From Saccharopolyspora shandongensis (lineage in GTDB: Bacteria > Actinomycetota > Actinomycetes > Mycobacteriales > Pseudonocardiaceae), in contig NZ_FNOK01000006.1 of assembly GCF_900106995.1 (NCBI RefSeq), positions 62,001-126,000 on the forward strand: a stretch of 64,000 nt of DNA, given 5' to 3'. Position numbers and translations under genes: made by a program. Shown in pieces: positions 7,480-43,510 of the stretch (the stretch's first letter is position 1; each line of letters opens with the position of its first letter). Below the pieces are notes generated by a model. That model did not search any database and had not been told where the DNA came from. It was given only the letters and a program-made list of their open reading frames with translations.

Positions 7480-8442
7480 GTGGTCCGCGTGGACAGCACC
7501 GCCACTGATCGCTTCGACATCAGTCGGTTCGAGGCCAGTCGGAACCGGCTGGCCTCGCTGGCGTACCGGCTGCTGGGCTCCGCCGCCGACGCCGAAGACG
7601 CCGTGCAGGATGCGTTCTTGCACTGGCAGACCGCCGACCGGCAGCGGATCAAAGTGCCGGAAGCATGGCTGACCAAGGTCGTCACCAACCTGTGCCTCGA
7701 CCGGCTCCGCTCGGCACAAGCCCGCCGCGAACGCACCGTCGGCGCCTGGCTGCCCGAACCGCTCCTCGACGGCGACCCGATGCTCGGCCCGGCCGGCACT
7801 TTCGAGCAGCGCGAATCGGTCTCCCTGGCCGTGCTGACTCTCATGGAGCGCCTGTCACCCCTCGAGCGGGCCGTCTACGTCCTGCGCGAAGCGTTCTCCC
7901 ACAGCCACGCCGAGATCGCCGAGATCCTCGACATCACCGAGTCCGCGAGCCACCAGCACCTCCACCGGGCCCGGCGCCGCATCACCGCCGCCCGCCGCGG
8001 CGGCGGCGACGTCGACCCGGCATCCGCCCGCAGGATCGTCGAAGAATTCCTCGCCGCTGCCTCCTCAGGCCGCACCGAACGGCTGGTGGCGCTGCTCACC
8101 GACGACGCAACCGCGATCTCCGACGGCGCCGGCCTGACCGAGAAGCTGCTGCAGTTCGACACTCCGCAGCGCATCGCCGCCGTCGCACGGGCCGGCTTCA
8201 AACCCACACCCGCGAAACGGCGACTCGCCGGCGGCACGCCCGCCGTCCACTACGCGCTCGTCAACGGCGCCCCCGCCATCCTCTTCGTGCTCGGCGACCA
8301 GGTCATCGGCGCCGTGACGTTCGACATCTCCAGCGGCAAGATCGCAACCGTGCGCGGCATCGCCGCCCCCACCCGCCTCGTCCGCCTCACCGAAGCCTGG
8401 CGGCAGCACGCACCGGACACGCCGCTCATCACCCAGTGGTGA
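7480..8442 (+). CDS. sigJ: ECF sigma factor of the ECF41/SigJ group with SnoaL-like C-terminus
   Basis: A 320-residue RNA polymerase sigma factor. Sigma region 2 (AYRLLGSAADAEDAVQDAFLHW, about 28-49) and region 4 (LSPLERAVYVLREAFSHSHAEIA, about 125-147) are followed by a SnoaL/NTF2-like C-terminal domain of about 130 residues. In the ECF41 family this domain replaces an anti-sigma factor and tunes activity. GTG at 7480 or 7489 is the start. Characterised ECF41 factors drive genes for carboxymuconolactone decarboxylases, oxidoreductases or epimerases next to them. Here the flavoprotein at 4523 fits, with the P450 and ferredoxin in between. No clear target promoter could be assigned by eye. Confidence 0.88.
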   Translation: MVRVDSTATDRFDISRFEASRNRLASLAYRLLGSAADAEDAVQDAFLHWQTADRQRIKVPEAWLTKVVTNLCLDRLRSAQARRERTVGAWLPEPLLDGDPMLGPAGTFEQRESVSLAVLTLMERLSPLERAVYVLREAFSHSHAEIAEILDITESASHQHLHRARRRITAARRGGGDVDPASARRIVEEFLAAASSGRTERLVALLTDDATAISDGAGLTEKLLQFDTPQRIAAVARAGFKPTPAKRRLAGGTPAVHYALVNGAPAILFVLGDQVIGAVTFDISSGKIATVRGIAAPTRLVRLTEAWRQHAPDTPLITQW

Positions 8443-8860
8443 CCCGACGCCGACCGCAGTCAGGCGCAGCGCCCGCGTTTCACAGGTGGTCGCGCGTGAA
8501 ACGCCGAAGCTGTTCGCGCGCGACCGGGACATAGCTCACGACTGATCATGCGGGCGTCCGCCACCGCGATTCGTGGATTGCGAACCGGGCGCGCTCGGGG
8601 CTGGGGCGATCAACGCGAGGGCGGCGTCGACGAGGGCTTGGGGCCGGCTGGGCGTGAACCGCTCGGGTTCGAAGGGGAACATCACGGGCCAGAACTCGAC
8701 CGTGACCGGGGCCAGCCGGGGTCCGCCACGCCGGATTCGCCCTGCAGCCGCACGGGCCCGTTCGGAGTCGTGATCACGTGGCTGGGAAAGGATTGGACGG
8801 GGTGATGCTCGGGCTTGTAGCTTGCAGTGGACCGTGACACCGCCCGAGGAGGTGAGACCC
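8443..8860. other. Stretch without a supported gene
   Basis: A minus-strand frame ending at 8536 encodes a protein-like tail (FWPVMFPFEPERFTPSRPQ) with no recognised family and no clear start. It may be a relic. Nothing else is supported here. Confidence 0.3.
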
Positions 8861-10514
<1,654 letters not shown>

Positions 10515-38795: not shown

Positions 38796-41700
38796 CTACG
38801 CGTCTGCCGCCAGAGCGGCGGTGATGAGCCGGAATTGCGTTGGGCCACCGGGGTTGAGGAGGATGTCGACCCCCCTGGGGATGATGTCGGGCAAGTCGTT
38901 GCCCAGCACCGGCCACCAGTGCTGCATCAGGAGCCGCTGCTTGTGGCGGGGCGCGGTGGCGACGAGCGCGCACGCGACTCCGTCGGGCGCAGTGCCCACC
39001 AGCGGCCGGTGCTGGGCGTCGCAGGCGATTTCCACGACGGAATGCCGGAAGGCCGGGACGAGCCGGTCGCCGACCTGCCCGCCGGCGGCGGCCAGGTGCA
39101 GCACGAAGTCGATGGGGTCGGTCGCGGCGCCATGGTGGGCTGGCCGGTAGCCCGGGTTGGGCTGGAACGGTCCGGGGCGTCCGGCGGCGTCCAGGGGCCA
39201 TCCGCCGATCATCGCGTCGTCGGACGGCTCCTCCCCCGGTTCCCGGGCCTGGTCGAGGAGGACGAGCCACTCGTTGTCCTCAGCTCCGGCGGTGCGGCGC
39301 AGGATCGTTCCCGGCATGGGGCAGGCCACCGGCCCGGTGTGGGGGTCGTGGCGGGCCAGGTCGGTGAGGATGTCGTGCATCGTGGTTCTGGCGCCGTCGA
39401 GATCGCTTTCGAACGCCTGCGGTTCCTCAGCGGCGAGCCGCGTGTAGACACCGACGGCTTCCTCGACGGCGGTCCAGGCGGCGGCGAGTGTTCCGTCGGT
39501 GGCGTGCTGGTGCGCCAGGTGCCACGACGCCAGTGCGAGCCGGGGCAAGTGGGCGGCCGGGTCGAGTTCGGCCAGTCGCCGGTGGAGTCCGATGACGCGG
39601 CTCAGCGTGTCGCGGAATTCGTCCTGCCGCCCCAGGTCGCGCAGCAGCCAGGCGTGGTGGTCCAGCACGATGGCGAGGCGGGGCTCGTGCTCGGTGGGGT
39701 CGTCGCGGGCGAGCCGGTCGAGGATGCTGATGGCTTCCGCGGCGGGAGCGGCTGCTTTCTTCGGCCGCAGCAGGTTCACTGAGGTGACGTGCAGTGCGGC
39801 GGCCAGGACCGGTTCGTTTTCCGCGGGGTCATCGTGTGCGAGTCGGCGCCAGATCCTGGCGGCTTCCCCGGCGGCGGCCGCTGCTTTCTCATGTTGTTGC
39901 AACCGTTGTGCAGTCTCGGCGAAGCGTTTCAGCGCGAGCGCGAGGTGCGCCTGGTGTTCGGGGGTGCCGTCGCGGGTCAGCCGGCGGCGGAAGCGGATGG
40001 CTTCCTGACCGGCTGCCAGCGCATCTTCGTGTCGTTCCAGGATCCACAACGCTTCGGCGAGCATTTTCAGCGTGACGGCCAGGCCGGGCTCATACTCGGC
40101 CGGGTCGTCGCGGGCCAGCCGCCGGTAGGCTGCGGCGATGTCGCCGAGCACGGCGATGGCCTCCTCGCACGCCATCCACTGGTAGGGATCCGAGGGGTCG
40201 CCAAGTGGCAGGTCCGCCAGCTTCGCCGTCACCGATTGCAGCGCGCTGCCGGTGCAGGCCTCGGCCCCGCGCGCGGGGCTTTCGGACAGGAGCACGCCGG
40301 AGATCTCACCGATGGAGTTCAGCAACTCCTCCCACCATCCCAGCTTCGCCAGGATGCTGCTGCGCTCGACCAGGGCGCCGAGCAGGAAGTCGTTGCGGTC
40401 CGGGATGTCCTCCGATGTCCTGACGAGGTCGAGGATCGCGTCCTGCGCGACGAGGACCTGCTCCCACCGTCCCAGCCGTTCCAGCATCCAGATCAGGCTG
40501 AAGTAGGCCTGGAGCGCCGCGGGAGCGGTCGCGGCCGGGTTCTCCCGCGCCTCGCGGCGCACCATCTCCACGCCTATTTCCAGGCCGGCGGCATCGTCGG
40601 GTGATGCGTGCACCCAAGCGGTGCTCAGCACCCCGGTCATGGTGTCCTGCCAGGCGTCACCAGCCTGGCTGTCCGGCGCCCGGCGGCGGATTTCCACGAC
40701 CTCGCCGAGTGCCGCGCGGGCGTCGTCGACCTTTCCCAGCCGCAGCAACATCGACGCCTGCGTCGTCAGCGCGAAGGAGAGGTCTTCTTCGCGGTCGGTG
40801 GGGTTTTCGCGAGCCATCCGGCGTGCGAGTTCGACCGCCTCGCGGCTGAACTCGCACGCCCGTTCGGGCTGCGATCCGGCCAGGGCCGCGGCGAGGGTCA
40901 CCAGCATGTACGGGATGGTGTGCTCGTATTCGGCCGGGTCCTCGCGCGCCAGTTGGCGGGTGAGCTCGACGGCCTCACCGGCGAGGGCCACGGCTTGGTG
41001 GAGCTGTCCGAGGTGCGGCACGAGGAACGCCGCCACACCGAGCGCCGCGACCAGGTTTACCTTGTACTCGGCGGGGTTTTCGGCCGCCAGCCGGCGGTAG
41101 GTCTCGATGGATTCGCGGAACGCCGCCAGGGCCTGGTCCGGGGTCTCGTCGTCGGCGGCCCGTTCAGGAGTCATCCGCCCGAACACCCGGGACAGGGCGA
41201 GGCGCAGCGCGGATCCGGCGAGTTCGGGTTCGAACGGTCCGGGCGCGGTCGCGGCGAGCCGGCGGTAGAGCCGCACGGCTTCGGAGTGTGCGGCGGTGGC
41301 CTTCTCGGTGCGGCTGGCCCTGTCCAGCCACTGCCCGAGGTTGTCGTGCAGGCGGGCGAGCGCGGCTGGGTCGGTGGTGGTCGGCAGCCGGTGCCGGGCG
41401 AGGCGGTCGGCGAGATCGGCGGCTGCGGCGGCGAGGTCGCCGCGGGTGTGGTCGGGATCGTCCGGGAGGAGCGCTTCGAGCGTCTCCAGCGTGCTGATCA
41501 GGTGCGGCCAGCGTTCGCTTGCGGCGGTGAGGAACGTGATGGCGCGCGCGGCGTACGGCGGTAGCGGGCCGTCCTCGGTGGCGGGGGCCAGTAGGAGCCC
41601 GGGGGTGCCGTCTGCCCACGGGTCTGGGATGTGGCCGGGCACGTGGTGGCCGGGCAGGCACAGAGCGAGGAAGTCCTCGGCGAGGCGGTCGGGGTAGAGC

Positions 41701-42872
41701 GGCTCGAGGACCGTGCGGGGGTCGGCGGGCGGATAGCAGGTGGTGTGGTCGGCGAGCATCCGGTCGGTGTCGGCGGCGGCGCCGGCGGTGTCCAGGGCTG
41801 CTTTGGCGTCGCGGTAGCCGAGTGGGCCGGTGAGTGCGGCGGTGAACACGGCCCGGCACATCTCGGCCGGGGTGGTGTCGAACGCCGCGCGGCCTTCGGC
41901 GGGGTCGGTGCCGGCGCGGCCGGTGGTGTGGCGAGTGTGCCAGTGGTGGCGTTCCCGTTCCAGCAGGTAGGCGGTCAAGGCGGTCATGCCTTCGGGCGCC
42001 GGCCGGGTCGGGGTGCGGGCGTGGCGGTCGACGGCGACCAGCGCGGCCATGTGCACGGCGAGGGTGAGCCCGAACTCGTCGCGTTCGAGCCAGTCGGGCA
42101 CGTCGATCGCCGCGGCGTCGGGCAGCCGGTAGTGGCGGGCGAAGCAGTCCCGGGCGGTGGTGAACATGCTGGTGCGGGCGTGGTGTTCGCCGGGCAGCGG
42201 GTTCAGCGGCCTGGTGGTGCAGGCGTCGGGTGGCCAGCCGGCTTGGGTGAGGGCGTGGTGCAGGGCCGGCCACAGGTGCGCGGTTCGGGCGAGCAGCAAG
42301 ACCCGCACGGGCACGTCCTGGATGAGGATCTTGTTGCTGAACAGCCACGTCAGGTGGGTCAGCGGCCATCGGTCGGCGTAGTCGACGACGATCAGCAGCC
42401 CGGTGGCGGTGCCGGGGCGCAGGTCGTGGCCGGCCGGTTCGTCGGCGTCGATCCGGGTGGGCATGTGCTCGGCGGTGATCACCTTCCACCCGTCGCGGGC
42501 GGCTTGGGCGGCGATGTGCCGGGCGAGGCGGGTTTTGCCTTGCCCGCCGGGGGCGTGCAGCCAGCGGACCGCGCGGCCGGTGGCGCTGTCGCGCCAGTCG
42601 GTGAGGTCGCGGACTTCGGTGTCGCGGCCGGTGAAGTCCACGACGGCGGAGCGGGCGTCGAGCAGGTGGCTCGGCTGGGCGGGCAGGCCGTGGCCGTCCA
42701 GCGCCGGCGCGGTGCCGGGCGTGGCGGTGGTGGCGTTGGTGAGCCGGTACACGGGCCGGCCGTCGCCGAGGACGTGGAGGTCCGCGCCGATCACACCGTA
42801 GGCGTAGCCGGATTCGGCCTGCACGACCTGTTCGACCGAACCTGGCAGGTTGCTACCATCGGCGGTGATCAT
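38796..42872 (-). CDS. STAND NTPase with TPR-like repeats and SseB-like tail (NLR-like)
   Basis: 1358 residues. Residues 18-34 hold a short Gly/hydrophobic motif, QAESGYAYGVIGADLHV. A P-loop NTPase follows: Walker A LHAPGGQGKTRLARH near 105-119, Walker B GLLIVVDYADRW near 158-169, sensor VRVLLLART near 188, all in STAND style. Residues 500-1150 are helical repeats with regular R(R/Q)LA...(D/E)PAE...L units, like TPRs of NLR proteins. The last 150 residues (VPAFRHSVVEIACDAQH, RGVDILLNPGGPTQF) resemble the SseB-type domain. Such proteins are switch ATPases that sense and then trigger an effector. The convergent neighbour on one side is the ECF42 gene. The divergent small gene at 43055 is the probable effector. 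No signal peptide. Confidence 0.8.
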   Translation of the reverse strand: MITADGSNLPGSVEQVVQAESGYAYGVIGADLHVLGDGRPVYRLTNATTATPGTAPALDGHGLPAQPSHLLDARSAVVDFTGRDTEVRDLTDWRDSATGRAVRWLHAPGGQGKTRLARHIAAQAARDGWKVITAEHMPTRIDADEPAGHDLRPGTATGLLIVVDYADRWPLTHLTWLFSNKILIQDVPVRVLLLARTAHLWPALHHALTQAGWPPDACTTRPLNPLPGEHHARTSMFTTARDCFARHYRLPDAAAIDVPDWLERDEFGLTLAVHMAALVAVDRHARTPTRPAPEGMTALTAYLLERERHHWHTRHTTGRAGTDPAEGRAAFDTTPAEMCRAVFTAALTGPLGYRDAKAALDTAGAAADTDRMLADHTTCYPPADPRTVLEPLYPDRLAEDFLALCLPGHHVPGHIPDPWADGTPGLLLAPATEDGPLPPYAARAITFLTAASERWPHLISTLETLEALLPDDPDHTRGDLAAAAADLADRLARHRLPTTTDPAALARLHDNLGQWLDRASRTEKATAAHSEAVRLYRRLAATAPGPFEPELAGSALRLALSRVFGRMTPERAADDETPDQALAAFRESIETYRRLAAENPAEYKVNLVAALGVAAFLVPHLGQLHQAVALAGEAVELTRQLAREDPAEYEHTIPYMLVTLAAALAGSQPERACEFSREAVELARRMARENPTDREEDLSFALTTQASMLLRLGKVDDARAALGEVVEIRRRAPDSQAGDAWQDTMTGVLSTAWVHASPDDAAGLEIGVEMVRREARENPAATAPAALQAYFSLIWMLERLGRWEQVLVAQDAILDLVRTSEDIPDRNDFLLGALVERSSILAKLGWWEELLNSIGEISGVLLSESPARGAEACTGSALQSVTAKLADLPLGDPSDPYQWMACEEAIAVLGDIAAAYRRLARDDPAEYEPGLAVTLKMLAEALWILERHEDALAAGQEAIRFRRRLTRDGTPEHQAHLALALKRFAETAQRLQQHEKAAAAAGEAARIWRRLAHDDPAENEPVLAAALHVTSVNLLRPKKAAAPAAEAISILDRLARDDPTEHEPRLAIVLDHHAWLLRDLGRQDEFRDTLSRVIGLHRRLAELDPAAHLPRLALASWHLAHQHATDGTLAAAWTAVEEAVGVYTRLAAEEPQAFESDLDGARTTMHDILTDLARHDPHTGPVACPMPGTILRRTAGAEDNEWLVLLDQAREPGEEPSDDAMIGGWPLDAAGRPGPFQPNPGYRPAHHGAATDPIDFVLHLAAAGGQVGDRLVPAFRHSVVEIACDAQHRPLVGTAPDGVACALVATAPRHKQRLLMQHWWPVLGNDLPDIIPRGVDILLNPGGPTQFRLITAALAADA

Positions 42873-42986
42873 CCGCAGCCGCCTTTCCGGGCGGTTCGGG
42901 GAAATCCAGTGGTGACGGGCACGAACGCGCGCTGTTCGTCGATCTCCGCCGGTGATCGGGCCATCCCGCCATGATGACGCCGAACG

Positions 42987-43015
42987 TTCACACGGCGAAG
43001 TCGTTTCGCTACATT
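42987..43015 (+). promoter_or_regulatory. Putative promoter of the small partner gene
   Basis: TTCACA (42987-42992) and TACATT (43010-43015) are separated by 17 bp, upstream of the start at 43055. Inferred from consensus only. Confidence 0.4.
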
Positions 43016-43054
43016 GGCGATCACTTCGTGAGTGCGGTCGCTAGGGGGTTCGTG

Positions 43055-43510
43055 ATGTTGGCGGAGGTTCTCGCCGCGCTGGCGGGCGCGGGTGGCACCG
43101 CGGTGGTCGGCGCGATGGCCACGGATGCCTGGGAAGGCACGCGCGATGGTGTGGCGCGGTTGTTCAGCCGAGGCGGTGAGGATCGGCAGCGGGTCGTCGA
43201 GGCGCAGCTGGACGAGGACGCGGAGGTGCTGAACGCCTCGGCGTCGCCGGAGGAGCAGGATCAGGTGCGGCGGGAGCTGGCTCCGGTGTGGACGCGCCGG
43301 CTGTCCCGGTTGCTGGAGGAGCATCCCGATGCCGAGGGCGAGCTGCGCGAGGTGGTCGACCGCGTTCAGGAGGAACTTCCCGGCGGCGCGCGTTCCTGGA
43401 CGCAGACCAACATCGCCCGCGACGGGGCCACGCAGTTCGCGGTGCAGGGCGGCAACGTGATCTACCACCAGGCGCGACCGGCCGCGGAGGGTGATGCGCC
43501 GGAGTCGTGA
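43055..43510 (+). CDS. Small helical protein with C-terminal amyloid-like motif (putative STAND partner)
   Basis: A 151-residue protein. Residues 1-25 form a Gly/Ala-rich amphipathic helix (LAALAGAGGTAVVGAMATDAW), then three charged helices (to about 118) and a disordered tail with FAVQGGNVIYH at 128-138. The N-terminal bundle looks like the bacterial HeLo-like (Bell) cell-death domains, and the tail motif resembles RHIM/BASS-type amyloid signalling motifs. Both are inferences from pattern, not alignments. ATG at 43055 follows AGGGGG. The gene is divergent from the STAND NTPase, whose N-terminus carries a related motif. No enzymatic residues are evident. Confidence 0.7.
   Translation: MLAEVLAALAGAGGTAVVGAMATDAWEGTRDGVARLFSRGGEDRQRVVEAQLDEDAEVLNASASPEEQDQVRRELAPVWTRRLSRLLEEHPDAEGELREVVDRVQEELPGGARSWTQTNIARDGATQFAVQGGNVIYHQARPAAEGDAPES

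What the first reader, a model, noticed from the sequence alone, without database searches (positions are those of the whole stretch)
38796..43510. Divergent NLR-like STAND NTPase and small helical partner with matching short motifs
Seen: a 1358-residue P-loop NTPase with TPR-like repeats and an SseB-like tail, and a divergent 151-residue protein with a Gly/Ala-rich N-terminal helix. The NTPase N-terminus has YGVIGADLHV and the small protein's C-terminus has FAVQGGNVIY; both fit aromatic-x-V-x-G-x-(N/D)-(V/L). Known: bacterial NLR-like proteins and neighbouring HeLo-like (Bell) effectors can share amyloid signalling motifs (RHIM/BASS classes). Inferred: sensing by the NTPase templates the small protein, which then damages the membrane. 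The SseB-like tail and the order of domains are not ones I can match to a described system.
Basis: partly seen in the sequence, partly recalled or inferred. Interest (0 to 1): 0.8.

Follow-up and report, generated by a model that had tools for sequence, protein, structure and literature searches.

The report
Bacterial immune receptor with helical effector
A soil actinomycete carries a bacterial cousin of plant and animal NLR immune receptors next to a small helical protein that appears to share a short signalling motif with it, a known kind of suspected self-destruct switch seen here with an unusual extra domain and gene layout.

Summary

The two motif families match (profile score 18.6 against 7.4+-1.8, 0 of 1000 permutations), but the window's own two motifs do not beat shuffles, and overall co-variation in 58 pairs is absent (partial Mantel r -0.04, P 0.68). 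Several Bell paralogues with other motifs have neighbours with the matching other motif. In nine other systems a membrane-helix protein with a similar tail replaces Bell, which hints at the membrane as target.

Peculiar to this window: the NF033532 tail and the divergent order (1 of 91). The RHIM core is absent. BASS1-10 membership could not be tested. Amyloid templating and killing remain inferred.

The parts
38796..42872 (-). STAND/NLR-like receptor, 1358 aa
42762..42830 (-). receptor-side motif, residues 15-37 (QVVQAESGYAYGVIGADLHVLGD); mean pairwise identity 67% over 58 non-redundant members against 50% for the NTPase
41613..42650 (-). NTPase core, residues about 75-420, with P-loop GGQGKT and DYAD
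39333..41315 (-). TPR-like repeat region, residues about 520-1180 (limits set by eye)
   Evidence: TPR_12 below its cut-off, 4 stretches
38808..39275 (-). C-terminal NF033532 (type VII secretion-associated) domain, residues 1200-1355
   Evidence: a search with the tail over the NLR loci held hit only the window
43055..43510 (+). Bell-like small effector, 151 aa
43058..43375 (+). five-helix bundle, residues 2-107; helix 1 (2-20) is Gly/Ala-rich; the peak 19-residue hydropathy of the protein is 1.67, just under the 1.7 used for membrane helices
43403..43471 (+). effector-side motif, residues 117-139 (QTNIARDGATQFAVQGGNVIYHQ), no regular structure in the model (pLDDT about 63-84)
42873..43054 (.). 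divergent intergenic region with a promoter-like site on + at 42987-43015
   Evidence: 1 found; shuffles mean 0.0, sd 0.2

Best explanation
A two-gene immune or cell-death module of the Bell-BASS-NLR kind. The STAND receptor senses an unknown trigger through its TPR repeats and its C-terminal NF033532 domain and oligomerises through its NTPase. This clusters the N-terminal motifs, which recruit and order the irregular C-terminal motif of the Bell protein, most likely by cross-beta (amyloid) templating. The clustered helical bundles then expose the hydrophobic first helix and permeabilise the cell's own membrane. Shown here: predicted folds, conserved gene pairing, and a shared motif between the receptor and effector families. 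Inferred: trigger, oligomerisation, amyloid templating and membrane killing.
For: Receptor fold: NB-ARC, NLR and STAND-TPR matches. Of 150 sequences examined (window plus 149 loci) 139 hold a receptor relative; 94 have a Bell gene within 800 bp, found with a model of the Bell body that excludes the motif, and 91 of these also show the receptor motif. The two motif families align in register with one single-residue indel, 0 of 1000 permutations; also in the window's own subclass (15.0 against 7.6+-1.7, 0 of 500; 4 of 500 without the window). Six of ten other Bell loci were compared across classes: five cognate scores are 51-86 (L093, L100, L102, L104, L106) against 24.6+-7.5, maximum 47, for different classes. 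Bell bundle confident (mean pLDDT 89). Nine other systems have a gene with 1-2 predicted membrane helices and a similar tail in place of Bell. In this genome one strong Bell match and one strong receptor match (the other matches are weak or partial).
Against: The window's two motifs do not align better than shuffles; over 58 pairs the median z is 1.15 and 21 exceed 2. No overall co-variation. Column co-variation is not concentrated in register (mean z 0.76 in, 0.52 off). The receptor motif is more conserved than its NTPase and has medium model confidence (pLDDT 71-83), so it may be partly folded. No confident structural match of Bell. In one search the partner segments came from frames first picked by best score; L098 scored only 24 there because its segment was misplaced (88). 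In one search, L103 and L112 had no convincing partner, L105 scored 41, and the match of L099 lies far inside another frame. No functional or amyloid data for these proteins.
Confidence: 0.7

Rival explanations
1. Same receptor-effector pair, but the motifs dock as ordinary folded or beta-augmented peptides (heterotypic binding) and not by amyloid templating.
For: Receptor motif nearly fixed (67% identity) while the effector motif varies as much as the Bell body (39% and 41%); about three effector flavours go with one receptor motif; individual pairs are poorly alike.
Against: The motif families are nevertheless similar in register; position and length fit published amyloid signalling motifs (passages of PMC7889193 and PMC8086366); near-homotypic matches in sister Bell systems.
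Confidence: 0.17
2. The STAND protein is a regulator (MalT-like) and the small protein a partner in signalling or transcription, without killing.
For: STAND-TPR proteins include regulators (recalled); 8bob, a maltose-system structure, is among the fold matches; divergent genes share a control region here.
Against: No DNA-binding family appeared in the family scans; alternative partners with a similar tail are membrane-helix proteins; in L170 a CHAT gene lies upstream.
Confidence: 0.08
3. Chance neighbours with a chance pattern.
For: The window pair alone is not above shuffles; its gene order is unlike the other 90 pairs.
Against: 91 pairs, 59 non-redundant; family-level motif match.
Confidence: 0.03

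Closest known systems
Bell-BASS-NLR amyloid signalosomes of multicellular bacteria (Dyrka et al. 2020, not read; known through passages of PMC7889193, PMC8086366, PMC9815663, PMC12261475)
   Same: Adjacent genes; helical effector with C-terminal motif; NLR with N-terminal motif; actinomycetes.
   Different: Divergent order in this window; NF033532 tail on the receptor; receptor and effector motifs asymmetric; BASS1-10 assignment untested.
RHIM / fungal PP / BASS3 motifs (passages of PMC8086366, PMC7889193)
   Same: Short Gly-rich motif at receptor N-terminus and effector C-terminus.
   Different: Tetrad [IV]Q[IVL]G (recalled consensus) absent on both sides in 58 of 58 pairs.
STAND NTPase with TPR sensor (PDB 6mfv) and plant NRC1 NB-ARC (8bv0)
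   Different: A short motif stands in place of an N-terminal effector domain.
SseB domain, proposed peptide-binding chaperone related to Tic22 (passage of PMC9503650)
   Same: Four of five other NF033532 frames scanned also hit ADP-ribosylhydrolase models, below those models' cut-offs; that paper links SseB to such systems.
   Different: Fused to a STAND receptor in the window; identity of NF033532 with SseB not tested.

Membership tests
Bell-BASS-NLR signalosome | Adjacent NLR and small helical effector genes, conserved | tested here: met
   91 pairs
Bell-BASS-NLR signalosome | Similar motif at effector C-terminus and NLR N-terminus | tested here: met
   Family profiles; not significant for the window pair alone
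Bell-BASS-NLR signalosome | Motif belongs to one of BASS1-10 | not testable with these tools
   The paper that holds the profiles is not held
Bell-BASS-NLR signalosome | Motifs co-vary between partners | tested here: inconclusive
   No overall signal within the class; some mostly post hoc column pairs survive a tree control; classes match across several paralogues
Bell-BASS-NLR signalosome | Motif forms amyloid and cross-seeds | not testable with these tools
   Needs peptides
RHIM/PP/BASS3 | Core tetrad [IV]Q[IVL]G | tested here: not met
   0 of 58 on each side
NLR/STAND | NTPase fold with P-loop and repeat region | tested here: met
   TPR below cut-off
HeLo/MLKL-type membrane-active bundles | Structural similarity of the helical bundle | tested here: inconclusive
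PADLOC-listed defence systems | Match to a defence model | tested here: not met
   Receptor: none; small protein: only Cmr5 at E 0.015

The most novel reading that the evidence does not exclude
An unlisted, asymmetric class of signalling motif pair: one almost fixed receptor motif (consensus QxVxAExGFAYGVIGADIHVFGDG) is shared by receptors that fire at least three flavours of Bell tail and an unrelated set of membrane-helix effectors. In this genome the receptor has in addition captured a type VII secretion-associated, possibly peptide-binding domain as a bait, like the integrated domains of plant NLRs, to guard or detect secretion traffic.
Probability: 0.25. Interest if true: 0.65.

Novelty: new variant of a known kind. 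Interest (0 to 1): 0.5.

Why it matters
It gives a well-aligned set (58 non-redundant pairs) in which one receptor motif is combined with different effector tails and unrelated effector bodies. That makes two open questions testable: how specific amyloid-type signalling is between NLR and executioner, and whether Bell acts on membranes as its membrane-helix replacements suggest. The NF033532 domain on this receptor gives a concrete hypothesis for what one such receptor senses.

Tried and rejected
Direct motif-to-motif alignment of the window pair: not significant. Cognate against non-cognate scores and partial Mantel: null. In-register mutual information: no clear excess. Fisher tests of three in-register positions: P 0.042, 0.029, 0.11. 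Tree-controlled test of ten chosen column pairs: E13-N10, E1-N1 and E6-N16 0 of 500, E6-N5 P 0.002, E13-N5 0.004, E15-N13 0.006, E18-N17 0.022, E2-N2 0.034, E4-N4 0.052, E5-N5 0.316. Seven of the ten came from the 15 best of 552 pairs, so they are post hoc; E1-N1 rests on few sequences that differ from Gln.

RHIM membership: rejected. Pfam, NCBIfam, PADLOC and PHROGs for the small protein: nothing convincing; Pfam over the 45 Bell members: five scattered weak families, best 3 of 45. PDB sequence search with the Bell profile: two chance-level rows. Structural search with Bell: no confident match; no HeLo or MLKL chain is in the rows shown, which does not exclude them. NF033532 on other STAND proteins: 11 frames in 10 further loci had no P-loop pattern and no NTPase hit. 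Motif letters in the literature: 164 papers, 20 listed, each of these by a fragment of ordinary words; 2 papers, word noise. Passages asked for in PMC8195603 gave no Bell or BASS text outside its references.

Rows dropped: of 94 loci with a Bell gene within 800 bp, L093, L177 and L179 lacked the receptor motif pattern (L093 has another motif; L177 and L179 look interrupted); 32 redundant pairs above 85% NTPase identity; L166 because its Bell frame looks broken, which leaves 58. L154, L171 and L215 had two Bell rows; one was used. Three Bell rows more than 800 bp away were left out. For the Bell alignment 44 relatives from named loci were used, for the receptor alignment 37 of these 44. The pattern differs slightly from that: it counts 118 motif-bearing loci, 28 of them without a pair. 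One search looked only at same-strand frames ending from 60 bases past to 250 before the motif start.

Full report
What is there. The large ORF at 38796-42872 (-) and the small ORF at 43055-43510 (+) are present as described. The genome is 10.15 Mb in 134 contigs. The contig of genus-mate G008 is as long as that of a Saccharopolyspora ipomoeae record (738504 bases), so the window is probably Saccharopolyspora (inference). The neighbours look by eye like a transporter, a sigma factor, a glycosyltransferase and a methionine aminopeptidase, not a defence island; no search was made for them.

Tail. NF033532 is common among the relatives sampled (58 of 120 over the cut-off; 0 of 14 control genomes). 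Four of five other frames scanned also hit ADP-ribosylhydrolase models, below those models' cut-offs. A search with the window's tail over the frames of the window and loci L078-L226 hit only the window; loci L193-L226 end about 500 bases after the match and some contigs end early, so those C-termini were not tested. A passage of PMC9503650 proposes SseB as a peptide-binding chaperone linked to ADP-ribosylglycohydrolase systems; that NF033532 is SseB was not tested.

Small protein. An alignment of 45 members gives a five-helix bundle, residues 2-107, and a tail without regular structure at pLDDT 63-84. No Pfam family.

Pairing. The window and 149 loci were examined: 36 fetched around earlier hits, 79 named ones and 34 more; some are copies of one another. 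139 hold the receptor relative, and 100 Bell rows were found with a body-only model. 94 loci had Bell within 800 bp, 91 of them with the receptor motif; 59 remain at 85% NTPase identity. 90 of 91 are tandem with Bell first and its stop near the receptor start; only the window is divergent. Named hosts include Streptomyces, Micromonospora, Nonomuraea, Nocardia, Kitasatospora and Amycolatopsis, and one 4-kb contig labelled Myxococcales.

Motifs. Receptor-side consensus QxVxAExGFAYGVIGADIHVFGDG, 67% mean identity against 50% for the NTPase; effector side 39%, Bell body 41%. Effector tails fall into about three flavours (43, 8 and 7 of 58, sorted by my patterns). Profile comparison of the two sides: 18.6 against 7.4+-1.8, best of 1000 column permutations 15.4, reversed 6.6. 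By flavour: 15.0 (0 of 500), 11.9 (0 of 500), 8.4 (P 0.008); window's flavour without the window 15.3 (P 0.008).

Co-variation. Cognate partners are not more alike than non-cognate ones (23.7 against 23.4, P 0.29); Mantel r 0.13 (P 0.04) vanishes when NTPase and Bell distances are controlled (r -0.04, P 0.68). Some column pairs stay associated under a tree-based null, the strongest an Ala/Gly pattern: effector position 13 and receptor position 10 are Gly-Ala in 26 pairs, Ala-Gly in 13, Ala-Ala in 13 and Gly-Gly in 1 of 58. These were mostly chosen after the fact. Between classes: of ten other Bell loci searched for a matching frame, L098 (88), L093 (86), L100 (62), L104 (54), L106 (54) and L102 (51) have a neighbouring frame with the same motif, L105 is weaker (41), L099 (52) matches far inside another frame, and L103 and L112 gave nothing convincing. 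In the cross-class comparison of six of them plus six window-class members, five cognate scores are 51-86 against 24.6+-7.5 (maximum 47) for different classes, while window-class cognates score only 18-48. So partner matching holds between several motif classes but is not detectable among pairs of this class. This fits either promiscuous signalling within the class or asymmetric docking.

Effector exchange. Of 28 motif-bearing receptor loci without a Bell pair, 11 (nine systems; L180 and L188 repeat L084 and L085) have an upstream gene with 1-2 predicted membrane helices by simple hydropathy and a tail that scores on the effector motif. Seven of the nine were aligned to their own receptor motif: L133 z 8.5, L085 6.4, L147 3.7, L084 2.0, L151 1.4, L125 1.3, L080 1.3. 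L170 has a CHAT gene upstream (E 7e-11) without a recognised motif; L165 has another candidate without a membrane helix; the other 15 gave none.

Own genome. Bell: one strong match and two at E 0.007 and 0.07, both with a stop inside. Receptor: one strong match and five partial ones at E 6e-5 to 8e-4.

Known or new. Passages of PMC7889193, PMC8086366, PMC9815663 and PMC12261475 describe this layout as Bell-BASS-NLR, with ten motif families and some unlisted pairs; the original paper is not held. The RHIM tetrad is absent here. Hence the architecture is known, and this locus is a variant by its tail, its gene order and its asymmetric motif pair. Searches of the held library for the motif letters found nothing relevant in the rows shown, nor did the topic searches; most subscription papers are not held.

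Noticed in passing
L093 (frame 8281-9381, -): Effector that by eye joins a nucleotide-cyclase-like part to a Bell domain, with a tail very like its own receptor's different N-terminal motif (score 86).
   Followed up: partly
L080, L081, L082, L084, L085, L125, L133, L147, L151: Small membrane-helix proteins replace Bell upstream of the same receptor motif; five of them had no Pfam family above its cut-off.
   Followed up: partly
L098: RHIM/BASS3-like tail (FQVGDHNRQD) on a Bell paralogue with a matching motif in the neighbouring frame.
   Followed up: partly
L227, L228, L230, L231: NF033532 domains in large frames that also hit ADP-ribosylhydrolase models.
   Followed up: partly
L166, L115, L177, L179: Bell or receptor frames that look interrupted beside an otherwise intact partner.
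   Followed up: no
L173: A pair on a 4-kb contig labelled Myxococcales, either transfer outside Actinomycetota or a binning error.
   Followed up: no
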